Part shown: positions 20,239-38,499 of the stretch, piece by piece | Position numbering within the stretch: the first letter of the stretch is position 1 | Layout of the letters: each line of letters starts with the position of its first letter | Assembly: GCA_029881795.1 (NCBI GenBank) | Contig: JAOULX010000006.1 | Location: forward strand, 1 to 64,000 | Origin: Gammaproteobacteria bacterium | GTDB taxonomy: Bacteria; Pseudomonadota; Gammaproteobacteria; SZUA-229 | Direction: 5' to 3' | Length of the DNA stretch: 64,000 nt | The notes under the pieces: generated by a model | The model's input: only the letters and a program-made list of their open reading frames with translations | What the model was told of the DNA's origin: nothing | The model's database searches: none | Translations under genes and position numbers: made by a program

Positions 20239-22717
<2,479 letters not shown>

Positions 22718-22732
22718 ACACTGAAAACTTGT

Positions 22733-22766
22733 AAAAAAAAGCCTGATTGATTCAGGCTTTTTTTTT
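22733..22766 (+). terminator. Rho-independent terminator after purA
   Basis: GCCTGA / TCAGGC stem (22741-22746, 22752-22757) flanked by eight A and a run of at least eight T, so it can act in both directions. Confidence 0.92.
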
Positions 22767-23405
22767 GCGCTGTTATTTTTTGTGGTAAACATTGTAAAAT
22801 AAACATTCAGCGTGTCCGATATGGCCGAAAGTTTATTGCAAAATCTGTTTAATGACGACTTCGAAACACTTGTTCTTGGCATTAGTTCCACCGGCTACTC
22901 TGGCTCAGTAATTTTATCAACAGGCTTGTCAGCTGCAAAACCAGCCTGATGCAGCTGACACTGTGTTACACAGCACCGATCGAGCAGCTTGTAACACAGT
23001 GTTTGTTATCGACAGCAGATGAAATCATCGTCAGTAAATTTCAGCTGCGGCTCAATAAATAGGTTACTGGAATAAATCTGAAATTAGCTGGTGTGCGCCG
23101 GCAACAATACACAAAGCACTGCAGACACTGCAGGCCAGTTTGCAGCAGCAGTGTCGTCGCTGTTCAGTTAGCTTGCCACAGCAGTTGTTTAAACCGCATC
23201 TGACACGGCTGAAAAAAAGCATTGAAATAAAACAAAATGAAACAATCAGCCTGCTGTCATGGGTGGTGACAGATTTTGTGTTACTGCTATCATCGACAAC
23301 AGCTCGGGGTGTTGTTTATGCAGAAATTAAACGCTGGCCATTGATCTGATGTCGCGGACAAAAATCTGACTGGCTCAGGGCATTAAAATAGAGTAAAAGT
23401 ACCTT
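22767..23405. other. Gene-poor stretch with two adjacent inverted repeats; possible gene remnant
   Basis: No convincing gene. A 45-codon frame starts with GTG at about 22811 (SDMAESLLQNLFNDD) and ends at TGA near 22949. A 69-codon frame lies at 23140-23349. Neither resembles a family I know. They could be pieces of one decayed gene. Between them are two perfect inverted repeats described separately. The stretch lies between the purA terminator and the MBL-fold gene. Confidence 0.4.
22929..23001. repeat. Two back-to-back inverted repeats
   Basis: TCAGCTGC (22929-22936) is mirrored by GCAGCTGA (22951-22958), an 8-base stem with a 14-base loop. Immediately after, CACTGTGTTAC (22959-22969) is mirrored by GTAACACAGTG (22991-23001), an 11-base stem that extends to 12-13 bases with flanking pairs. 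No T run follows, so they are not simple terminators. Confidence 0.75.
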
Positions 23406-24821
23406 ATGTATATAGAATTTCACGGCGCAGCTGAGCAAGTCACCGGTTCCTGTTATCTGATCGAGGCAGGCGCAAGCCGGATATTACTGGATTGCGGGAT
23501 GGTGCAGGGCAGTCAGCAGGATGAAAAGCACAATGCCGATGATTTTGCATTTAACCCGGCTACGATTGATGCGGTCATACTTAGTCATTCACATATTGAT
23601 CATTCAGGGCGTATTCCATTTCTGGTCAAGTCAGGCTTTAAAGGACAAATTTACAGCCACCGAGCCAGCCGTGATTTATGCAGCATTATGTTGCAGGATG
23701 CCGGCTACTTAAATGAACGTGAAAGCCAGTGGGAGAACCGCAAACGTGAACGTAAAGGACTGGAATTAATCGAGCCCTATTTCACGGTAGAGGATGCGCA
23801 AAATGCGATGCAGCAGTTTCACCCGCTGGAATACGGACAGACATTGCAACTGTCTTCGTCGGTCAGTTTTAAGTTATCGGATGCCGGCCACATCCTTGGC
23901 TCGTCCATTATTGAACTTTGGTTATCGGAAAATGGGCTACAACGAAAAATCGTTTTCAGTGGTGATATCGGTTATCCCGAACGGCCGATTTTGCATGATC
24001 CGGCGATCATTAAACAAGCCGATCTGGTGATCATGGAATCAACCTATGGGGATCGTCTGCACCGCACTTCGGAGCAGACCTGTCAGGAAATGACAGAAAT
24101 CCTCTGTCAGGCTAACAGTGAGCGGGGTAATATTATTATTCCGGCTTTTGCCGTGGGCCGAACCCAACGTATGATATATGAATTTGCGAAGCATTATGAT
24201 GACTGGGATCTTGCGCGCTGGCAGATTTTTCTCGATAGTCCAATGGCAATAAGTGCGACTGAGGTCTATACCAAACATACCGAGCTTTATGATGAGGAGG
24301 CCAGTGAGCTGTGGCAAAAAAACAGCGTCAGCCCATTACTACCTAATCTACAACTGTGCCGTACCGCGAATCAGTCAATGGCATTGAACAGCATCAAATC
24401 AGGTGCGATCATTATCGCCGGCAGTGGCATGTGCACTGGCGGGCGTATCAAACACCACTTAAAACACAATATCTGGCGCAAAGATTGTCACCTGATCATT
24501 ACCGGTTTTCAGGCAAGAGGTACACTGGGCCGCAAACTGGTTGATGGCAGTAAACGTATCCGTTTGTGGGGCGAAACATTTCAGGTTAACGCCCGACTGC
24601 ATACTCTGGGTGGGCTTTCGGCGCATGCCGATCAGGCCGGTTTACTTAGCTGGTTTCAGCACTTTGATAATGCACCACCGCTGGTTCTGGTGCACGGTGA
24701 GCCTGTCGCATTGAATGCCTTAAAAACAGCCATTGAAGCCAATACCGATTCAGCCGTTATGATAGCCAAGAAATTTTCAAAAATAGATTTAACCGCATCA
24801 ATACAGTTGACAATGGACTGA
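23406..24821 (+). CDS. Beta-CASP metallo-beta-lactamase-fold RNase-like protein
   Basis: 471 residues. Zinc motif SHSHIDHSG (HxHxDH), GHILGS, SGDIGYPERPI and MESTYGDR of the MBL domain; a beta-CASP insert with IPAFAVGRTQRM and SGMCTGGRIKHHL; and the C-terminal RMMBL segment LGGLSAHADQAGL with FLVHGE-like VLVHGEP. This is the RNA-processing nuclease architecture shared with CPSF73-like and YsdA-like enzymes, acting in the cytoplasm. The exact RNA substrate is unknown. It ends 132 bases before jetA; nothing ties it to that locus functionally. Confidence 0.9.
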   Translation: MYIEFHGAAEQVTGSCYLIEAGASRILLDCGMVQGSQQDEKHNADDFAFNPATIDAVILSHSHIDHSGRIPFLVKSGFKGQIYSHRASRDLCSIMLQDAGYLNERESQWENRKRERKGLELIEPYFTVEDAQNAMQQFHPLEYGQTLQLSSSVSFKLSDAGHILGSSIIELWLSENGLQRKIVFSGDIGYPERPILHDPAIIKQADLVIMESTYGDRLHRTSEQTCQEMTEILCQANSERGNIIIPAFAVGRTQRMIYEFAKHYDDWDLARWQIFLDSPMAISATEVYTKHTELYDEEASELWQKNSVSPLLPNLQLCRTANQSMALNSIKSGAIIIAGSGMCTGGRIKHHLKHNIWRKDCHLIITGFQARGTLGRKLVDGSKRIRLWGETFQVNARLHTLGGLSAHADQAGLLSWFQHFDNAPPLVLVHGEPVALNALKTAIEANTDSAVMIAKKFSKIDLTASIQLTMD

Positions 24822-24941
24822 TTTAACTCAGCAGATTGCGCATTAATTGCCTGCCATGGTGTGTGTTTTTTGATCATTTTATGATCTTAAAATCTTGCCC
24901 GGATTAGGCTTATGCGAATGGTCTTAAACTGACTTAACGCG

Positions 24942-24947
24942 TACAAT
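24942..24947 (+). promoter_or_regulatory. -10-like element directly before jetA
   Basis: TACAAT ends six bases before the jetA ATG (24954). No Shine-Dalgarno lies between. If used, transcription would start at or near the start codon, giving a leaderless message. The -35 region is poor. Confidence 0.35.
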
Positions 24948-24953
24948 GCGCTG

Positions 24954-26405
24954 ATGTTTTTTATCGAAACCCGCCAATATTTCTTCCGTCCATTTTCCGG
25001 TAAATACCGTGAGCAGGTAATGGAATGTCTGCGCGTGCTGTATGCCCGTTTATACGGTGATCAGGCTGATTATTCACGTGCTTTCACTCAGGATCAACTG
25101 CTTGAATGCTTCGAGGATGCGATAACCCGAACCCCGGTACTGGATGAAGATGAAGACAGCGAATTTGTCGTTTCCGGCAAAAGTGAGAGAGAGCAGGCCA
25201 ACTGGGTGCGCAATCTGTTGCTGGAGCATGGCTGGCTGGAATGTCATGCCGACGAGGCCACCTTGCAGAGTACCTATGGTTTTAGCCGGGTCGGGCGTTT
25301 ATTTACCCAGCCAATGGTAGAAACTGCCGGTGCCGGGTTTCGTACCCGTCACCGCAATACCCGCAATACCCGCAACGCACTTCAATCTTTTGTTGAACGC
25401 GGTGATGTTTACGATTTGCTCGATGCTTATGAAGCATCGGCACGAATCATCAGTGACTTTAGTGATGTGATTGCCGAACTCGATGAACGTAAACGTCAGC
25501 TGGTAAAAGAAGTGGAATCGCAGCAAGTCGTACAACAGGCAAGCGATGACTTTTTTGATTTTATGGAGCAGCGGTTTATGCCGGATCTGTCGATTCGTAT
25601 GTCGAGTGACAGTGTGGAAAAACACCGCGAAGAAATACAGCAACTGATTCGAAAAGCCCATCGCAAACAAAATGATTTTAAAGCCAGTGCTGAAAAAGAA
25701 CTGAGAAAAATGGCGCCGGAGTTGCGCAGTGCCGACAACGCCTCATTGTATTTACGCATACTCAATGGTATAGAAGGGCGCATTCACAGTGCCAGTGAAA
25801 TCATGTTGCCGGCCTTGCGTCAGGCGCTACACAGTTTCACCCGGCGTGCGGATATTATTATCCGTCAACTCAGTTACAACAGTTACAGTGATCAGGGAGG
25901 CTTACCAGCATTATGTCAGGCGCTGGCCGAAATGCCCGAGCAGGAAAAAACCAGCAAACTGCAAGCCATGGCAGAAGCTATGTCGGGTTTATCAGTTGGT
26001 TTTGTTGATCCCTCTGCGCTTAAACTGCACAGTGTGAGCAGCCAGCGGCTGGTCAACAGCGCGGTAGAAACTCAGCAGGAAGTCGGTAAAGAATCCCGCA
26101 AAACACTGTTTATCCAGCAGGTCTTGGAAAAAGCCTTTCAGGTCAATAGTAAGGATCAGATCCAGTATGTTATTGCCGCATTAAAAAATGGTCACCGTAT
26201 TCACAGTAAACATTTGCCAGTTAACAATGCGCGCGAGTTATTAATGTCAGCACATGCCATAGAAATTGCATCTGCTGCCAATATTTCTTCCGAGTTTGCC
26301 TTCAAGCTGCGTTATAACCAGCAAACTACCAGTACCGAATATTATGATCAGCTCGATGACTTTGTTATCGAGCTGGTTGAAAAAGATCAACAGGCTATTA
26401 ATTAA
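24954..26405 (+). CDS. jetA: Wadjet subunit JetA (MukF-like kleisin)
   Basis: 483 residues. The protein is mainly alpha-helical, with an N-terminal winged-helix-like region (FRPFSGKYREQVMECLRVLY) and a long helical middle rich in charged and Gln residues, as in JetA/MukF kleisins. The assignment rests mostly on context: it is the first of four genes in the order kleisin, DUF4194, SMC, DUF3322/DUF2220. In Wadjet, JetA bridges the JetC heads and recruits JetB to form the plasmid-sensing loop extruder. The stop is one base before jetB. No ribosome site is seen before the ATG. Confidence 0.88.
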   Translation: MFFIETRQYFFRPFSGKYREQVMECLRVLYARLYGDQADYSRAFTQDQLLECFEDAITRTPVLDEDEDSEFVVSGKSEREQANWVRNLLLEHGWLECHADEATLQSTYGFSRVGRLFTQPMVETAGAGFRTRHRNTRNTRNALQSFVERGDVYDLLDAYEASARIISDFSDVIAELDERKRQLVKEVESQQVVQQASDDFFDFMEQRFMPDLSIRMSSDSVEKHREEIQQLIRKAHRKQNDFKASAEKELRKMAPELRSADNASLYLRILNGIEGRIHSASEIMLPALRQALHSFTRRADIIIRQLSYNSYSDQGGLPALCQALAEMPEQEKTSKLQAMAEAMSGLSVGFVDPSALKLHSVSSQRLVNSAVETQQEVGKESRKTLFIQQVLEKAFQVNSKDQIQYVIAALKNGHRIHSKHLPVNNARELLMSAHAIEIASAANISSEFAFKLRYNQQTTSTEYYDQLDDFVIELVEKDQQAIN

Positions 26406-26406
26406 T

Positions 26407-27108
26407 ATGATTACCGATCTGATAGAACAACAGCTGCAAAAAGAAAATGTCAGCATCAGTGAGTTTCGTGAACTGCTGATTCGCCTGCTTAACTACAGTG
26501 TCTTGTCGCGACATGAAAACCAGACTGAACAACAGTTGTATGATCGCTATCTGCGGATCGCCGACTTGATTAACGAATATCTGGCGATGATAGGTGTGCA
26601 GGTTTTCCATGACACACGTTTCGAATACCTTCGGCTGTATCCGCCTTCTAGTCAGGTGCCGGGTATGGAAGAGGCTGATAATCAGGCCTTTGCCGGCAGT
26701 TTGCGTGCCCGTTTAAGCCAGCAGGAAGTGGCACTGATACTGGTTCTGCGATTGCAATACGATAAAGCCCTGAGAGAAGCCAAACTCGATGATCAGGGTT
26801 ACGTTACCGAATCGTTTGAAGCCATTAACATTGCGATGAAAAATATTATAGGCCGTTCATTGCCTGAAAAACCGGCCGAAAGACGGCATTTATTCGCGCG
26901 CTGTAAAAAACTTCGGCTGATTGAATACAATCAGGAAGATGATGTGTTAAAAGCCGAGGCCTGGTTAAAAATTCATCCTATGATAGTTAGCTTTGTTAAT
27001 GATGACGCAATCAATGCGCTGCAAAGCACAGCACATCCTGCGCCCGACGAGACCGATAATTTGCATCAGACCGGGTCTGAGTCAGCAGCGACAGAAGAGA
27101 CGGAATAA
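26407..27108 (+). CDS. jetB: Wadjet subunit JetB (MukE-like, DUF4194)
   Basis: 233 residues from ATG 26407, one base after the jetA stop. A winged-helix-type protein (VSISEFRELLIRLLNYSVLS, YLRIADLINEYLAMIGVQVF, DTRFEYLRLYPP) typical of DUF4194, the JetB family. It binds the kleisin JetA as MukE binds MukF. The C-terminal tail (about 210-233) is acidic and low in complexity. A longer frame reaches back to 26266 inside jetA, but coupling to the jetA stop favours 26407. Confidence 0.9.
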   Translation: MITDLIEQQLQKENVSISEFRELLIRLLNYSVLSRHENQTEQQLYDRYLRIADLINEYLAMIGVQVFHDTRFEYLRLYPPSSQVPGMEEADNQAFAGSLRARLSQQEVALILVLRLQYDKALREAKLDDQGYVTESFEAINIAMKNIIGRSLPEKPAERRHLFARCKKLRLIEYNQEDDVLKAEAWLKIHPMIVSFVNDDAINALQSTAHPAPDETDNLHQTGSESAATEETE

Positions 27109-27113
27109 GACCG

Positions 27114-30100
27114 ATGTTTTTAAAAAAATTTATTTTCATTAACTGGGGAAACATCCCTAATATTGAGTTTGACATGGGGCCGGTTAATTTATTATCCGGC
27201 GGCAGTGGTTCTGGTAAAACCACGGTCGGCGATGCGATCCAAACCATTATGACGGCAGCGCATGAAAACCTGTTTCAGTATAACCCCGGGCAGGATGAAA
27301 CAACCCAGCGAGGTCGTGGTGGAAAACGAGTGCGTACCCTGGCTTCGTATGTTTTGGGCTGCGATGATGGCAGTTATGCGCGACCTAATGATGCGACTGA
27401 TGGTTATCTGGCGGCGGTTTTTCACCCCACTCAAGGAGAGACCACAGAACCCTTTACTGCGCTGATTGCAGTACGAGCCTGGCTTGATCAGACCGGCAAA
27501 CAAAAAGTAGCACGACAGGAAGATCTGTTGTTTTTAATATTGCCGGGTGAACAGCTCAATATTCATCATTTAGTACGGCAGGATGTCGGTGGTAAATACA
27601 TCGTGCCGATGGACAAAATCAGCAACCTTCTGATAACGGAATTCGGTAAGCGTCATGTGGAAAAATACGATGCAAAAAAACGTGCTTACTTGCGCCGCTT
27701 ATACGGTGCATTACAGGGCCGAAGTGATTCAGTGACAGAACAGGAAGCGATGAATGCAGCCAGAGCCTTCTCTCGCTTCATGGCTTATAAACCGGTACAA
27801 AGTATCAATAAATTTGTATCAGAAGAAATACTTGAGAAAAAAGATCTGGGTGAGGCGATTCGCTCAATTTCGGGTCAGCTAAAAACCATTCATGGTATGG
27901 AAAAAGATGCTGCTCAGTTGGTTCAGTCTATTGAAATACTGCAACAGGCTGAGCAATATGCTGGCGACTATGTCGAGCGCTGGATTGACTATAATACACA
28001 GGAGTACACGCTGGCGATGCATCGCCACAAAGCACGGCAGAAAGATTACTTAAAAGCCAGCAAGCAGCGCACACAATATCGTACACAGTCGAAAGAAAAC
28101 CAGACTGAAACAAGCGAAGCGCAGCAGCGACTGAAGCAGCTGCATGAACAGCGAGTTCAGCTTGAGGCCCAGCGCCTGGGTATCAGTAGTTTAAAACAAA
28201 AAGATGAACTGGATAGCCAGCTGAAACAGCATCAGCAGCAAATGATTGAGGTAGCGCAGCAGCTGCTAAAACAGGATGCGGAGCAGGTTAGTAATTTTCA
28301 GAATATAGAATCCCTAAACCGCGAACTGCAATCCGAATCGATCCGACAGTTACTGCTGCAGTTTACCGACTTTGAAAGCATGGCTCTAATTAAGGATGTT
28401 CTTAAACAGGGTGATAAAGCGGACATCGACATACACTCTATTTTACAAAAAGATTTGACCGATGATTTAACCGCGCTTGAATTACATCTGGATCATATTC
28501 GTATTGCGCAAAACCTTCATAACCGCTGTTACCTGTACTGGCATCAGCACGACAATCAACAGAGCCGGTTTGAAGAGTTAAGTGCAGAAGTGCATAAAAG
28601 CCGTTCACGTTATGAAAAGCTGGGTCAACTGCGACAGCAAAAACAACACGAAATTGAGCGCCTGCAACAGCACAAAGTCAGTTACCCTGGTTTTGTGCAA
28701 CGAGCGCTAGAAGCTATAAAAGTAGCCTGCCCGCAGGCTGACCCGAGGGTGCTGTGCGATCATGTTGAAGTTACCGACGAACGCTGGCAAATGGCGATTG
28801 AAGGCTATTTAGGAGGCGCACGTTTTTCCATTATTGTCGATGAGGCTTATGAAGCCGAAGCGATTCAGATTATTCGTCAGCTGAGCGGGCGTGATAACCG
28901 TGCCAAAGTGATACAGGGCAGCAAGGCCCGCCGCGACAGCGAAAAAAATCGCCAGCAAAGCAATTCTATTTTACAGGTCTTAGACTGTTCGCATTCGACA
29001 GCGCAGCATTACTTAACGGCCAGTTACAGTTCGGTGCTAATGGTGGAAACCGCTGAAGAGCTTAAATCATGCGGTCGTGGTTTAACCAGTGATGGCATGG
29101 CTGCCGGCAGCTACAGTATGTGGCGCTGTGATTTAACCGATGCCGAGCTGGTGTTTGGGGTGGCAGCCCGTGAGCGCGCACTTAAAGCCAAACAGCAGGA
29201 GCTGCAGCTACTGACAGATGAGTGGCAACAGTCCAATGACCAGATGCAACAGCTGGCCAGAGTGCAGGATAATATACGATCATTAAAACTGCTGAGCTAT
29301 GCCGAAACACTGTCGTCATTGATGGCAGGTCAGCGTGAAATTCAGAAAATTGAAAAGCTGATGAGTCAGCTTGATTTATCGGAACACAATGAGTTGGAGC
29401 AGTCGCTGCAAGATTTGAAGCAACAACAGGAGCGATATCAACAACAGCACAGTGATTTGCTAGAAGAAAAAGGCAAACTTGATGAGCTGATAAAAAACAC
29501 CTCAAGTGACTGTGAAAAACTTTCAGATCAGCAAGATAAAACACAGCAGCTAGTTGAACAAAGCGAACAAAATTTAAGAGCAATAGTCAGCCAGTGGCCG
29601 GAGTTTGATGTCGAGTCAAAACTCGATTCGGCAGATGTTGACGCAACTCATATTAATGAAGCCACAGCGAATAATTTTTTACAGGAAACAGAAACGCAGT
29701 TGCATGAACTCGAAAGAAAACTATCGAAGTCTGTTCAGCAGCATAATGATAACTGTCTACCTGCAGACAGTCTGGTATACGAAAATTATTCAGGCCGCTA
29801 TGACCACGGTCTGTTCAGTTTGATATGTCAGACCCATAAGCAGCTAGATCTGGTTTACAATCGCTTAAAAAACAATATTCTGGTAGAAAAACATTCAAAA
29901 CTGACTCAGTTAAAAGAAAGTTTTAACAACGCCTTCGTGACTCATCTGTGTCATACCATTCATCAGGCTGTCAGCAGTGGTAAACGACAGATCGAATTAT
30001 TAAACAATGAGCTGCATCATCATAAATTTGGAGCCGATCAGGAAAGTTTTCGTTTTGATAGTCAGTGGATGCCAGAGTATAAAGAGTACGCCACATTCTT

Positions 30101-30755
30101 TGACGATGTGATCAATCAGCCGACGCTGGGGGAAGAAATGAATCTGTTTGATATGCCGTTATCCGATAAATCAAAAAAAGTCAGGGACCAGCTGATGAAA
30201 ATGTTGCTGGATGAGGATGAGAAAAAAGCCCTCAGTGAACTTGAGCGTATCGCAGATTATCGAAACTACCGGCGATATGAAATTTACAAAGAAGTCGAAG
30301 GCAAAGAACCGATTGCACTCAGTGAATATGGCACCGGCAGCGGTGGCCAGCTGGAAACACCGGCTTATATTATTCGCTCGGCAGCCATCACTTCGGCCTT
30401 CAGGTTTTCTGAAGGCCTCAGTCATCTGCGTATGGTGCTGGTTGATGAGGCTTTCTCAAAAATGGACGAATCACGTTCACGCGAAGTTATCGATTATCTG
30501 ACACGGAGTCTGGGCCTGCAGCTGGTATTCATTATGCCATCGAGTAAAAGCGGCCCGTTTATGGATTTGGTCAGCAATGAATTTGTGTTTGCCAAATGCC
30601 CGAGCGAAAACCCCAGAGGCGAACTCAAAACCCGGGTCTGGGTTGACCGCAAACAATGCAACAGCGACAAAATAAAAACCCTCTGGGCCAACCATCGAAA
30701 AACAGAGTATCGTCAAGCAGAAATGGACTTTATGAAAGAGTTTGCAGATGGGTGA
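27114..30755 (+). CDS. jetC: Wadjet subunit JetC (MukB-like SMC ATPase)
   Basis: 1213 residues. Walker A GGSGSGKTT at 29-37; long Gln-rich coiled coils (about 300-520 and 720-900) around a hinge-like region (about 540-620); ABC signature TGSGGQLETP near 1073-1082; and Walker B VLVDEAFSKMD with catalytic Glu near 1112. All ATPase motifs are intact. In known systems the JetABC complex extrudes DNA loops and identifies small circular DNA for cleavage by JetD. The gene starts five bases after jetB and its end overlaps jetD. Confidence 0.95.
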   Translation: MFLKKFIFINWGNIPNIEFDMGPVNLLSGGSGSGKTTVGDAIQTIMTAAHENLFQYNPGQDETTQRGRGGKRVRTLASYVLGCDDGSYARPNDATDGYLAAVFHPTQGETTEPFTALIAVRAWLDQTGKQKVARQEDLLFLILPGEQLNIHHLVRQDVGGKYIVPMDKISNLLITEFGKRHVEKYDAKKRAYLRRLYGALQGRSDSVTEQEAMNAARAFSRFMAYKPVQSINKFVSEEILEKKDLGEAIRSISGQLKTIHGMEKDAAQLVQSIEILQQAEQYAGDYVERWIDYNTQEYTLAMHRHKARQKDYLKASKQRTQYRTQSKENQTETSEAQQRLKQLHEQRVQLEAQRLGISSLKQKDELDSQLKQHQQQMIEVAQQLLKQDAEQVSNFQNIESLNRELQSESIRQLLLQFTDFESMALIKDVLKQGDKADIDIHSILQKDLTDDLTALELHLDHIRIAQNLHNRCYLYWHQHDNQQSRFEELSAEVHKSRSRYEKLGQLRQQKQHEIERLQQHKVSYPGFVQRALEAIKVACPQADPRVLCDHVEVTDERWQMAIEGYLGGARFSIIVDEAYEAEAIQIIRQLSGRDNRAKVIQGSKARRDSEKNRQQSNSILQVLDCSHSTAQHYLTASYSSVLMVETAEELKSCGRGLTSDGMAAGSYSMWRCDLTDAELVFGVAARERALKAKQQELQLLTDEWQQSNDQMQQLARVQDNIRSLKLLSYAETLSSLMAGQREIQKIEKLMSQLDLSEHNELEQSLQDLKQQQERYQQQHSDLLEEKGKLDELIKNTSSDCEKLSDQQDKTQQLVEQSEQNLRAIVSQWPEFDVESKLDSADVDATHINEATANNFLQETETQLHELERKLSKSVQQHNDNCLPADSLVYENYSGRYDHGLFSLICQTHKQLDLVYNRLKNNILVEKHSKLTQLKESFNNAFVTHLCHTIHQAVSSGKRQIELLNNELHHHKFGADQESFRFDSQWMPEYKEYATFFDDVINQPTLGEEMNLFDMPLSDKSKKVRDQLMKMLLDEDEKKALSELERIADYRNYRRYEIYKEVEGKEPIALSEYGTGSGGQLETPAYIIRSAAITSAFRFSEGLSHLRMVLVDEAFSKMDESRSREVIDYLTRSLGLQLVFIMPSSKSGPFMDLVSNEFVFAKCPSENPRGELKTRVWVDRKQCNSDKIKTLWANHRKTEYRQAEMDFMKEFADG

Positions 30756-31899
30756 TGCTAATCTACAGCCTGCATGGCTGCAGGATCAGCCTGAGATAGT
30801 TGCATTGTTACATAATGTGCTTGATAAATTAGATAACAATCCTGTTGCAGTACCGGGCTTTACCCTAACAGAAAAGCTATTACCAAAATTATTCGTTATT
30901 GATGATAATTCTGATTTGATGTGGCATTCATTGCAAACAATATTTAAAATAAAGCCACAAGATACTCAGTTTTGTGTATTTACTTATAAAGAAAATAAAA
31001 AGCGTAATGAATATGATCCTGAATATTGTGGAGCCCGTATCAAGTTTTTACCTGATGCCGAAGAAACATTGCGGCTTTGGCTTAATCGGCCATTTGTAGT
31101 ATCAAAATCACTGCAATGGAAAAATACAGTACAACAACACAAAACATACTTCCCTGGTTCTGTAGAAAAGCTATCTGCACGACACATATCGGTTAAACAA
31201 AAAACACCTGTTGAAGTGGTTCAGGGTTTTACGAAAATTTGTGAATATTTAAATCAAGAATTAACACTGCGAAATTTAAGTGCATGTTGCTTTTGGCAAG
31301 ATTCGAAATTTCTTGATGGAAAAGAGGAAATAGTCAGACAACTATATCCTCAGATAAAGATCAAAGTCAGACCTGTCATGGTCAGTGTTTTTCTTCCAGA
31401 AAACATACAAGGTATTTTATTTATTGAAAACTAGGATAGTTATACACAGGCCATTGCAGGCGTGCCGGCAATAGTTGATGGTATGGCCTTAGTATATAGT
31501 GCTGGTTTTAAAGCCAGTGCACAGCGGATAAGAGATCTGGAAGGGGTGTCTCTGCACTTTTCTGAATACAGTTGCCAACAAAATAGTGAAGAATTCAGAC
31601 AGTGGTGGATCGCAAATGGTGATACCCAATGGCCGGTCTATTTTTGGGGTGATCTTGATTATTCCGGGATGGGTATATTGGCGAACTTAAAACATCGTTT
31701 TGAAAATATCACGGCCTGGCAAGCTGGTTATCAGCCCATGCTAGAGCTGCTACTGACTGGAGCCGGACACGACGCGACGACAACAGGTAAACAGCAACAA
31801 ATAGACCCGAAAAAAACAGGCTGTTCTTTCGCAGATTCAAAACTACTGCCTGTATTAAGAAAGTATCGGCGCTTTATAGATCAGGAATGGCTTTGCTAA
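30748..31899 (+). pseudogene. jetD: Wadjet nuclease JetD interrupted by an in-frame amber codon
   Basis: Read through one TAG (31432-31434), the frame encodes 383 codons, a normal JetD length. The N-terminal part (DUF3322-like arm) runs to FIEN; the C-terminal Toprim part (DUF2220) continues in the same frame with DSYTQAIAGVPAIVDGMAL. The predicted catalytic residues are Glu227, two codons before the stop, and the DxD pair Asp302/Asp304 (GDLDYSG), after it. There is no frameshift and no other disruption. ATG 30748 overlaps the jetC stop; a TTG at 30742 is also possible. As read, the product lacks the nuclease core. One base change or read-through would restore it. The part before the stop is strikingly AT-rich. 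Confidence 0.9.
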
Positions 31900-34254: not shown

Positions 34255-35814
34255 TTATAACGATTGCAGAAACATAATCATTGCATCACGGTCTTGTTGC
34301 GACAGGGTTCTGAACTGTTCTTTTGCTGCTTCAGCTTCGCCACCGTGCCATAAGATAGCCTCTTCAAGACTCTGTGCGCGACCATCGTGTAGAAATCCAG
34401 CCAAAGGATTAACTGTTTTCGTCAGCCCGATGCCCCATAAGGGCCGGGTTTTCCACTCACGACCTGAGGCCAGAAAATCCTGTCGGTTATCGGCCAGGCC
34501 GGGGCCCATGTCATGTAATAACATATCTGTAAAAGGGTATATTGTTTGATTCGATAACTCTGCAATCTGCGGATGTTGTCCGGTGGTAAATGAGGCGCTG
34601 TGACAGGCAGTGCAATTAGACTGCTGAAACAAACTAGCACCGTGCCTTACCTCCGGGTTATCGATATTTCTGCGTGCCGGCACATGTAAGGTCTGTGCAT
34701 AAAAGCTGACGGCATTCGCGGTGTCATCGGAGACTTCACGACTGTCTGCCGGCAGACTGGTAGCGGCAATATAATTATCATAAAGCGTAGTGCCGGCAAT
34801 ACTTTCTTCAGGGAATAAATGACTGGTAATACCCATGTCACCATTAAATGCCCCCAGTGTTTGCACCATGACACTGGGGTTGTTGGCTTTCCAGCCAAAA
34901 CGTCCCAGACTGACAGGTTGTGGCTCACCAGCTCTGGCTTTAATAGCGTCGAACACATAATTTGCTCGGCCCGATATGCCGTCGGCATCTGCATCATCCG
35001 GATCAGCTAGCGCCAGAATGTCAGCTTCTCTAATCGCTTCTAACAGACCCTGACCAATCATTGGCGGGCCGATCCGTGCACTGAGCCTGACAGTGTTCTG
35101 TAGTATCGCGCTGGCAGGTGAAATCGTTGTTGAGCTTTCATTAACCGCGTCATAAGGTTTATCAATTTCAAATACTGGCTTACGCAGGGTAATTGTGCTG
35201 CCATCAGCATAAGTGACCAGTTCGGTTTGATAACGATAGAGTACATCTGCCTGACCAGTATAGGGGGAATCGGTTCGCAGGTCGGCGACACCACGATGAA
35301 ATAACTGTGTGCCGAAATTTTCAACAGGTAGCGGAGCACACCAGTTATTATTAATATTCATCTGCGATTTTTCGCTGCAGTTTAGGTTGCTACCATCTTC
35401 GATACTGATGCGTAAAAACAGTGATTCGTTTGCGCCGAGTTTTTGCAGCAGCTCGCTGCCGGCAGGTGGTGTGCCGCGTCCGTCTTCCTGATGGCATTTA
35501 ACACAGCTGTTATTGTTGAAGGCCGGGCCAAGTCCATCGCGTTGCGGATAATCATTATTGGGTGCGGCAACAAAAGCAAATTCAAATGCTGCATCACCCT
35601 GCAAATGTGTTGCCAGTTGTGTCTCGCTAAGGTTTGCAGCCGGTGCAGAAAAGCCATGGCTGGAGTTAGATGCAGTGAGGTCGGTGGTATCCCCACCAAG
35701 CATCACGGCATTGATAAAGCCGGCTGCAGGGTTGCTGTTATTCGGGCTGTCACAACTACAGATAAAGACAGCTGCTAAAAGCAAGCTGATGCTATTGCGA
35801 ATAAAGGTAGGCAT
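34255..35814 (-). CDS. Di-haem c-type lipoprotein, DUF1111 (thiol oxidoreductase-like)
   Basis: 519 residues. A lipoprotein signal ends at Cys21 (ICSC), then Asp at +2. Two haem-binding motifs, CVKCH (104-108) and CTACH (401-405), frame a DUF1111 body (FGRFGWKANNPSVMVQTLGAFNG-like segment, FTDMLLHDMGPGL, TRPLWGIGLT, FLHDGRA). The fold is related to MauG/CcpA peroxidases. The gene is downstream of an imelysin and a porin behind a Fur box, a combination found in iron-regulated loci of marine bacteria. A role in periplasmic oxidation or iron handling is inference. Confidence 0.88.
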   Translation of the reverse strand: MPTFIRNSISLLLAAVFICSCDSPNNSNPAAGFINAVMLGGDTTDLTASNSSHGFSAPAANLSETQLATHLQGDAAFEFAFVAAPNNDYPQRDGLGPAFNNNSCVKCHQEDGRGTPPAGSELLQKLGANESLFLRISIEDGSNLNCSEKSQMNINNNWCAPLPVENFGTQLFHRGVADLRTDSPYTGQADVLYRYQTELVTYADGSTITLRKPVFEIDKPYDAVNESSTTISPASAILQNTVRLSARIGPPMIGQGLLEAIREADILALADPDDADADGISGRANYVFDAIKARAGEPQPVSLGRFGWKANNPSVMVQTLGAFNGDMGITSHLFPEESIAGTTLYDNYIAATSLPADSREVSDDTANAVSFYAQTLHVPARRNIDNPEVRHGASLFQQSNCTACHSASFTTGQHPQIAELSNQTIYPFTDMLLHDMGPGLADNRQDFLASGREWKTRPLWGIGLTKTVNPLAGFLHDGRAQSLEEAILWHGGEAEAAKEQFRTLSQQDRDAMIMFLQSL

Positions 35815-35888
35815 ATTTTATAAACTCTGTTGTTTGTTTGCCCTGCAACACTGAATAACAGTGTTGTAGGGCAGTTTATTAAACGCTT

Positions 35889-37070
35889 TTAATTATTGAA
35901 ATCTGTAACCGACAGTAATGAGATTACTTCATTTTGCAGAGAGCTTTGTAAAACACCCAGTGCGTTTATTGCGGTGCTGATACGGACACGACCTGCCGGA
36001 TCATTGATAGCATCTCGAAATGGAATCTGTGTCAGCGGATTGCTGATATCGGTGCTAGTGACATCAGCATCACCATCGATCAGTGCAATTTTTTGCATCG
36101 CATCGATGATTTCATTGAGTACGCGATCAGCCAGTTGTGAATCGTGTGCCTGCACAAAAGCATAGAGTCCGTTAAGGCTGTCTGAGATACTATCGACGGC
36201 TGGGTTATAAGATTTTTTACCGCTGTAAACATTGAGTACGCTTTGTATATTGTTATGGAAATCAGTCAGTGAATTCCAGCTGTACTGTGACTCAACCAGT
36301 GTGGTGTCTGCACTGTTAATATCGGCCGCAAACGGATCTGCTATTTTGCCGTTGCCAACTTCATCAACAATGCCGATCATGCCATTGATCAGCTCTTCCA
36401 TCACGGCCAGCTGTGACAAGTAAAGACCATCGCCAGTGAGTTTGAGTTCGTTGACATAAGGGCCACTGTTGACATCGCTTGGGTTGTACTGAATCGTCCA
36501 GGCATCAACCAGAGTCTGTGTGTGACTAGTGAAATTAGTCAGCAAATCCTGCAGATAAGTCAGCTCATTCGGGCTCAATTCAGTGCTGCGAGTGTTGCTT
36601 AAAATGCCATCACCAAATAATAGATATTCAATGGTATGAAAGCCCTGTACATCTTCGCTTGCATTGCTGCTGAAGCCGCTGTTGACAGCAGTTGCCAAAT
36701 CAACTGTGTTGAGTGGCCAGCTATCGAGTTTCGGATCAATGCCGAGTGAATCGACTGGTCCGATCAGAAAACCTTCACTACGTTCCCAGGGTCCGCGGGT
36801 TGCTTTCCAGGCATTCTGTGCGCTGATTAATGCACCGCTGCTGAGATCATCGCTGCCATTGAGAGCAGTGATGGCAGTCTTCAGTAAAGCGGCTTCTGTA
36901 TTTAATTCCTGATAACTGGCGACGATCACATTGTCGGCAAGATTACTGATGACCGGGTTAGCATCGTAATACAAATTATTATTACCGGCAGGCGCACTGC
37001 CTGAACACGCGCCTAAGCTCAGTGCAGAAGCGGCTATCGACAATAAAAAGGATGATTGTATTAGGTTCAT
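35889..37070 (-). CDS. Imelysin-family lipoprotein (peptidase M75-like)
   Basis: 393 residues from the ATG at 37070, preceded by GGAGA. Lipobox LGAC gives Cys22 with Ser at +2. The imelysin motif GFHTIEYLLFG (GxHxxEY) is present, with partner motifs PWERSEGFLIGPVDSLGIDP and LDSWPLN before it. Imelysins (IrpA, EfeO M75 relatives) are iron-regulated periplasmic or outer-membrane proteins thought to bind iron or haem. It lies between the porin and the DUF1111 gene in one Fur-box-preceded operon. Confidence 0.9.
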   Translation of the reverse strand: MNLIQSSFLLSIAASALSLGACSGSAPAGNNNLYYDANPVISNLADNVIVASYQELNTEAALLKTAITALNGSDDLSSGALISAQNAWKATRGPWERSEGFLIGPVDSLGIDPKLDSWPLNTVDLATAVNSGFSSNASEDVQGFHTIEYLLFGDGILSNTRSTELSPNELTYLQDLLTNFTSHTQTLVDAWTIQYNPSDVNSGPYVNELKLTGDGLYLSQLAVMEELINGMIGIVDEVGNGKIADPFAADINSADTTLVESQYSWNSLTDFHNNIQSVLNVYSGKKSYNPAVDSISDSLNGLYAFVQAHDSQLADRVLNEIIDAMQKIALIDGDADVTSTDISNPLTQIPFRDAINDPAGRVRISTAINALGVLQSSLQNEVISLLSVTDFNN

Positions 37071-37095
37071 ATTGATCTCCAAACAAGGGTGGGGG

Positions 37096-38466
37096 TTAAA
37101 ATGTAACGCCAAGGCCAAGCGCAAAATGATCGAACTGGTTGGCTATTTCACCGGCATGTTGGTGCTCTGCCAGTTCAGCTTTAAAAACGATATTGGGCAG
37201 AGGTTTGTAATTCAGACCCAGGGTTGTGCTGTTTCGTTGGTAGCGCAGATTGTCCTGAATCGTGCCTTCAACGGCTGCCATGGTGTCAAATTCATCATAG
37301 CGGATGAACAAATCAAGCCGGCCGTTGACAGTGCCCGAGTGCAGCAGATTGTAAGCGGCTTCAATATAAGCGGCTTCTGCCGCATGACCGACAGGTGTCG
37401 CAGAAATGCCGCGAACACCCTGGTTGACCAGGTTTTTATTGGCATCGGTAATCAGATCAGAATTTTCAACAGTACCGGCCATAACCTGGCTGCGGACAAT
37501 CCACGGGCCTTGCTGGTAACGTGCATGTATTTCCCAGATATTGACATTCGCGCTGACCGCGAGGTTTTGCTGATGACGATTCGAGGCACTGTTACCGGCA
37601 TACATCGCGGCACCGATCAGTCCGTGGTTTGCCAGCGGATAATCAAGCACAGCCACGATTGCCAGGTCATCCGCATTGGCAAATTCCATGCGCGTTTGGT
37701 AGCCACCAGCAACCCAGTTCTGACTGCTAAAGCCGGATGAGTCCAGGCCATTAACAACTAATGCGCGGTAATTAAACACGGCTGCCTTGCCGTATAATTC
37801 GACGCCGGTTTCATGCCAGGTATTGGGTATCAGTGCGGCTTCACCCAGTGATCGGCTAGCGGTGAAATAATCCGTCGGTTTGGTATAGCGATTAATCATG
37901 CCAAAAGGCACGACGATATGACCGATATGCCAGTTTATCGCAGCGCTGCTATGTATTTCTAGTTGGGCTTTTTCAACCACTACTTCGCCGCCTTTTTCCA
38001 GCTCAAGTTCATATTCACCAAACTCTGCTGCCTCGTATTCAACGGTAGAACCGGTGCCGCCGTGCTCAATTTCCAGCTCGGCTTCAAACATCATGGTTTC
38101 ACTCAGCTTGAACTTGGGTTCCAGTATCAGGCGTTCCAGATCAACTTTGCTACGACGATCTGGCACCGTGTCCTGTACGTTTCTAAAAAAATCATACTGG
38201 CTGTAATTGATCACCCCATAGCCTTCCCATTCCACAGCAGGGTGGCTCTTTGTGTGTAGTTTTTTGAACAGCTCACGTAGTTCAGAAACTGCTGCATTGG
38301 TCTGCTCCAGCTGTAACTTAAGCTCAGTAATCCGTGTTTTTTCCATTTCCAACTCGGTGTTTGATGCAGTGCTGTGCTGATCTATGGTATGAGTCACCGG
38401 CTCTGCAAAAGCCGCTGTGGAAGCCAATAGGATACAATTGAGCAGGTAATAAGTTGATTTTTTCAT
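37096..38466 (-). CDS. Outer-membrane porin-like beta barrel
   Basis: 456 residues. A signal peptide ends AAFAEP; a short coiled coil follows (ELEMEKTRITELKLQLEQTN, about 36-70), then a beta-barrel with alternating strands and a terminal Phe (LGLGVTF). The N-terminal coiled coil plus barrel recalls phosphate-selective/OprO-like and other trimeric porins. It is the first gene after a Fur box and is followed by the imelysin and DUF1111 genes, so it may form the outer-membrane entry for an iron or haem compound. The substrate is not recognisable. Confidence 0.85.
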   Translation of the reverse strand: MKKSTYYLLNCILLASTAAFAEPVTHTIDQHSTASNTELEMEKTRITELKLQLEQTNAAVSELRELFKKLHTKSHPAVEWEGYGVINYSQYDFFRNVQDTVPDRRSKVDLERLILEPKFKLSETMMFEAELEIEHGGTGSTVEYEAAEFGEYELELEKGGEVVVEKAQLEIHSSAAINWHIGHIVVPFGMINRYTKPTDYFTASRSLGEAALIPNTWHETGVELYGKAAVFNYRALVVNGLDSSGFSSQNWVAGGYQTRMEFANADDLAIVAVLDYPLANHGLIGAAMYAGNSASNRHQQNLAVSANVNIWEIHARYQQGPWIVRSQVMAGTVENSDLITDANKNLVNQGVRGISATPVGHAAEAAYIEAAYNLLHSGTVNGRLDLFIRYDEFDTMAAVEGTIQDNLRYQRNSTTLGLNYKPLPNIVFKAELAEHQHAGEIANQFDHFALGLGVTF

Positions 38467-38499
38467 GGGTATTAAGTCCGCAAATCACTATTTGTAAAC

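What the first reader, a model, noticed from the sequence alone, without database searches (positions are those of the whole stretch)
30748..31899. Wadjet jetD carries one in-frame amber codon exactly at the entry to its Toprim nuclease core
Seen: the jetD frame is continuous for 383 codons apart from a single TAG at 31432-31434. The residues on both sides (FIEN, stop, DSYTQ) read as an unbroken Toprim motif, with the predicted catalytic Glu just before the stop and DxD after it. jetA, jetB and jetC show no damage. Known: JetD is the nuclease of Wadjet; without it JetABC cannot cleave plasmids. Inference: either a recent loss of function that lets the host keep plasmids while the loop extruder stays expressed, or a regulated read-through/suppression, or a sequencing error. 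One base change (for example C to T in CAG) explains it.
Basis: partly seen in the sequence, partly recalled or inferred. Interest (0 to 1): 0.75.

Follow-up and report, generated by a model that had tools for sequence, protein, structure and literature searches.

The report
Anti-plasmid nuclease gene with nonsense codon
A bacterium's Wadjet anti-plasmid system is intact except for one stop codon in the gene of its DNA-cutting enzyme, most likely an ordinary recent inactivating point mutation (or a sequencing error), not a new way of decoding genes.

Summary
A type I Wadjet operon (jetA 24954-26405, jetB 26404-27108, jetC 27114-30755, jetD 30748-31899) has one in-frame TAG in jetD at 31432-31434 (codon 229), two codons after invariant Glu227 and before invariant Asp302/Asp304. 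The congener G003 carries the same operon with an intact 387-aa JetD and CAG at this codon. All 21 distinct relatives with the ENQDSY motif have CAG there, so one C-to-T change explains it. The stop is young or unreal: at 52 positions after it that are at least 95% conserved, this genome has no lineage-specific change. Nothing supports recoding: RF1 is intact, TAG terminates 27 of 187 long ORFs sampled, none of 33 tRNAs has a CUA anticodon, the RNA around the site is not unusually structured, and no other JetD has a stop there. Best reading: a recent nonsense mutation that removes most of the Toprim domain, so JetABC can no longer cut plasmids. An assembly or consensus error cannot be excluded without reads. 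Regulated read-through and a split JetD are unlikely. Pseudogenes in defence systems, Wadjet included, are already documented. Interest is low.

The parts
24954..26405 (+). jetA (kleisin), 483 aa, intact
   Evidence: PADLOC JetA1 E 3e-203, Pfam JetA; 82% identical to the congener G003
26404..27108 (+). jetB (KITE, MukE-like), about 234 aa, intact
   Evidence: PADLOC JetB1 E 6.5e-94, Pfam DUF4194
27114..30755 (+). jetC (SMC ATPase, MukB-like), 1213 aa, intact
   Evidence: PADLOC JetC1 E 0; Walker B, P-loop and hinge domains in Pfam; dN/dS about 0.05 against G003
30748..31431 (+). jetD before the stop: N-terminal CAP-like domain, first Toprim strand and invariant Glu227 (228 codons)
   Evidence: overlaps the end of jetC by 8 nt, as in G003
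31432..31434 (+). In-frame TAG, codon 229 of jetD; relatives have CAG (Gln)
31435..31899 (+). jetD after the stop: rest of the Toprim domain with Asp302/Asp304 (154 codons) and the terminal TAA
   Evidence: Pfam JetD_C 219-322; no lineage-specific change at 52 sites at least 95% conserved

Best explanation
This is a type I Wadjet operon whose jetD has recently acquired a nonsense mutation, one C-to-T change turning the family-wide CAG (Gln229) into TAG. Translation should stop after Asn228 and give a fragment with the CAP-like domain, the first Toprim strand and the metal-binding Glu, but no DxD and most of the Toprim dimerisation domain missing. JetABC would still be made and could extrude DNA loops, but without its nuclease the complex should not cut plasmids. 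Shown here: the stop, the intact relatives, the ancestral codon by comparison, the young age, and the absence of a visible suppressor. Inferred: that the stop is real in the organism, that the fragment is inactive, and that plasmid restriction is lost.
For: Congener G003 has the same jetABCD order with an intact 387-aa JetD and CAG at this codon. All 21 distinct ENQDSY-type JetDs retrieved have CAG there. In a class-wide search 10 of 274 genomes have a JetD, and only this one has a stop inside. The part after the stop is undamaged in frame. At 52 sites at least 95% conserved this genome has 0 private changes and G003 has 1. With 124 nonsynonymous sites, that bounds the neutral age below about 0.024 changes per site, against saturated synonymous divergence from G003. 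JetD evolves faster than JetC in every pair compared, so 59% identity to G003 is not a sign of decay. RF1 is intact, TAG ends 27 of 187 long ORFs, and no CUA tRNA was found. The AlphaFold2 model of the read-through frame has mean pLDDT 87, and its best solved matches are the nuclease MksG (8b7f), P. aeruginosa JetD (7til) and topoisomerase VI A. In MksG, alanine at the metal-binding E236 or D279 drastically impairs cleavage (PMC10123090). All four subunits are needed to suppress plasmid transformation in B. subtilis (PMC10586767).
Against: No reads and no second genome of the same species are held, so a consensus error or a minority allele cannot be told from a fixed mutation. The absence of decay is equally expected of an artefact. 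The Foldseek TM-scores are low (0.25-0.37), so the domain assignment rests mainly on sequence families.
Confidence: 0.7

Rival explanations
1. Sequencing, consensus or assembly artefact, or a minority allele in a mixed population: the organism's jetD is intact.
For: The assembly is a draft (27 contigs, 97.5% complete). The only defect is one base, and the rest of the gene looks fully constrained. Another draft genome, L063, has a different single stop (TAA) in its jetD N-terminus, so lone stops do occur in such assemblies.
Against: Interrupted frames are rare in this assembly: in a sample of about 292 kb only one other likely case was seen, a Y1 transposase-like gene with TAG at C8:85832, so general base quality seems good.
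Confidence: 0.22
2. Regulated read-through or amber suppression: the TAG is decoded at low level and gives full-length JetD, keeping a dangerous nuclease scarce.
For: The part after the stop shows no decay, and the position carries Gln, a common amber-suppression residue (own knowledge), in all close relatives.
Against: None of 33 tRNAs has a CUA anticodon, RF1 is intact, TAG is a usual terminator, the RNA structure around the site is not unusual (z -1.0), and no relative has a stop at this codon. The tRNA set of the draft is incomplete, so a missed suppressor is possible but improbable.
Confidence: 0.05
3. A split JetD: translation restarts after the stop (GTG 31462, ATG 31483 or GTG 31546) and two chains reassemble into a working Toprim.
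For: In-frame start codons lie 27 to 111 nt after the stop.
Against: No well-spaced ribosome-binding site precedes them (by inspection). Glu and DxD would sit on different chains, the stop falls just after a core strand of the model, and no relative has a two-gene JetD.
Confidence: 0.03

Closest known systems
Wadjet type I (JetABCD), JetD1 family
   Same: Gene order, all four subunits by PADLOC models, jetC-jetD overlap, Toprim acidic residues
   Different: jetD carries one nonsense codon; this JetD branch is sequence-distant from the solved JetDs, with no profile match to PDB sequences
Pseudogenes in defence systems, including a frameshifted jetC in a Wadjet operon (PADLOC, PMC9252829)
   Same: One broken gene in an otherwise complete Wadjet operon
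   Different: Here the broken gene is jetD and the lesion is a nonsense codon
[quoted passage not shown]
   Same: JetABC-like loop extruder without a working nuclease
   Different: Here the loss is a single very recent base change; a lasting new role for JetABC is not shown, and the genome has its own Smc

Membership tests
Wadjet type I (JetABCD) | Adjacent jetA, jetB, jetC and jetD genes matching family models | tested here: met
Wadjet type I (JetABCD) | Intact JetD with CAP-like and Toprim domains | tested here: not met
   TAG at codon 229 splits the frame inside the Toprim domain; both pieces belong to JetD1
Wadjet type I (JetABCD) | Toprim acidic residues (Glu and DxD) encoded | tested here: met
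   E227, D302 and D304 are invariant in 19 sequences and encoded here, but on opposite sides of the stop
Wadjet type I (JetABCD) | Restriction of circular plasmids | not testable with these tools
   Needs an experiment
Programmed stop-codon read-through or amber recoding | Stop codon conserved at the same place in relatives | tested here: not met
   CAG in all close relatives; no stop in any other JetD of the class search
Programmed stop-codon read-through or amber recoding | Amber-decoding tRNA or loss of RF1 | tested here: not met
   No CUA anticodon in 33 tRNAs; prfA intact; the draft lacks some tRNAs
Recent nonsense mutation (young pseudogene) | Orthologue intact in a close relative, one-step codon change, no further decay | tested here: met
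Recent nonsense mutation (young pseudogene) | Stop present in the reads and fixed in the strain | not testable with these tools
   No reads or conspecific genomes held

The most novel reading that the evidence does not exclude
The TAG is a natural low-level read-through switch that keeps JetD scarce, or the mutation is favoured because it frees a JetABC loop extruder from its nuclease, a first step towards a MksBEF-like condensin.
Probability: 0.05. Interest if true: 0.6.

Novelty: already known. Interest (0 to 1): 0.15.

Why it matters
If real, it is a clean natural example of a Wadjet operon that lost only its nuclease very recently, which fits the proposal that condensin-like complexes can arise from defence systems by loss of JetD. 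Otherwise it is an ordinary case of defence-gene turnover. It also warns that gene callers would report this locus as JetABC plus two fragments.

Tried and rejected
Amber suppressor or recoding: rejected on tRNA, RF1, stop usage, RNA fold and conservation. Long-standing decay: rejected by the relative-rate count and by JetD/JetC rate comparisons. Two-gene JetD in relatives: none seen. 5-methylcytosine deamination: with CAG the local sequence would be CCAGG, a Dcm-type hotspot, but no C5 DNA methylase (PF00145) was found in the assembly, so this is not claimed. Plasmid carriage as the selective reason: no PF03432 relaxase in the assembly, uninformative for a draft. Sequence search of solved structures found no JetD relative; fold comparison did. 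The congener G001 could not be used for jetD because its contig ends inside jetC. dS was saturated, so dN/dS of the two jetD halves is only rough.

Full report
Observation. The frame 30748-31899 reads for 383 codons with one internal stop, TAG at 31432-31434, codon 229. The upstream genes are an intact jetA, jetB and jetC. The read-through frame is a JetD1 (PADLOC E 2e-104 over residues 7-381; Pfam JetD_C over 219-322).

What relatives show. The window lies in a 2.93-Mb draft genome. Of three congeners held, G003 has the whole operon with an intact 387-aa JetD, 59% identical; the contig of G001 ends inside jetC; G002, 68% complete, has none. At codon 229 all 25 retrieved loci with the ENQDSY motif, 21 of them distinct contigs, have CAG; three more distant JetDs have Phe or Glu there. 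In a search of 274 genomes of the class, 10 encode a JetD and only this one has a stop inside; a phylum-wide profile search found three others, none with a stop. One further draft genome, L063, has a TAA near the start of its jetD.

Age. At positions conserved in at least 95% of outgroup JetDs, this genome has 2 private changes in 46 before the stop and 0 in 52 after it; G003 has 0 and 1. If the part after the stop had evolved neutrally, zero changes in about 124 nonsynonymous sites limit that time to about 0.024 changes per site (95%), while synonymous sites between the two congeners are saturated. The stop is therefore very recent, or not real, or the downstream part is still under selection. 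JetD is 12 to 28 points less conserved than JetC in all pairs compared, so the lower conservation of JetD here is normal.

Decoding. prfA (RF1) is intact. TAG ends 27 of 187 ORFs of 200 codons or more in a sample of contigs C8 and C12. Of 33 tRNA genes in the assembly none has a CUA anticodon, though the set lacks some expected tRNAs (for example Glu and Ile). The RNA around the stop folds no better than shuffles (z -1.0). There is no sign of recoding.

Consequence. A model of the read-through frame (mean pLDDT 87) matches C. glutamicum MksG (8b7f), P. aeruginosa JetD (7til) and topoisomerase VI A best (TM-scores only 0.25-0.37, perhaps because the two domains are hinged, so this is support, not proof). 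In MksG, loss of either of two metal-binding acids drastically impairs cleavage (PMC10123090), and in B. subtilis all four Wadjet subunits are needed against plasmids (PMC10586767). A JetD cut at residue 228 lacks the DxD and most of the Toprim domain and should be inactive; JetABC would remain. The genome has its own Smc, so JetABC is not its only condensin-like complex.

Position. The stop's place next to the catalytic Glu is not evidence of anything special: 42 codons of jetD are one transition from a stop.

Known context. [quoted passage not shown] The finding is a fresh example of a known kind of event, pending confirmation in reads.

Noticed in passing
G000:C8:85400-86104 (L070:5400-6104), outside the window: A Y1 (IS200-like) transposase-type gene is also interrupted by one in-frame TAG (C8:85832), after its complete Pfam domain; the only other likely interrupted gene in about 292 kb sampled.
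   Followed up: partly
L063:8001-9215: jetD of an Ectothiorhodospiraceae draft genome (NORP100) has a TAA near its N-terminus while its jetA and jetC are open.
   Followed up: partly
C8:1-100000 (window plus L069, L070): CCWGG is under-represented (119 seen, 194 expected from shorter words) while CCSGG is not (144 against 152), although no C5 DNA methylase was found in the assembly.
   Followed up: partly
window 21425-31899; L071; L073: The jet operon has different neighbours in the three congeners: just after purA and an MBL-fold RNase-like gene here, about 15 kb after purA behind a RuBisCO/CbbQ-like cluster in G001, and in another setting in G003.
   Followed up: partly
window 34258-38484, - strand: A cluster of a di-haem oxidoreductase (DHOR), an imelysin (peptidase M75) and a protein without a Pfam match, resembling an iron-uptake locus.
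   Followed up: no
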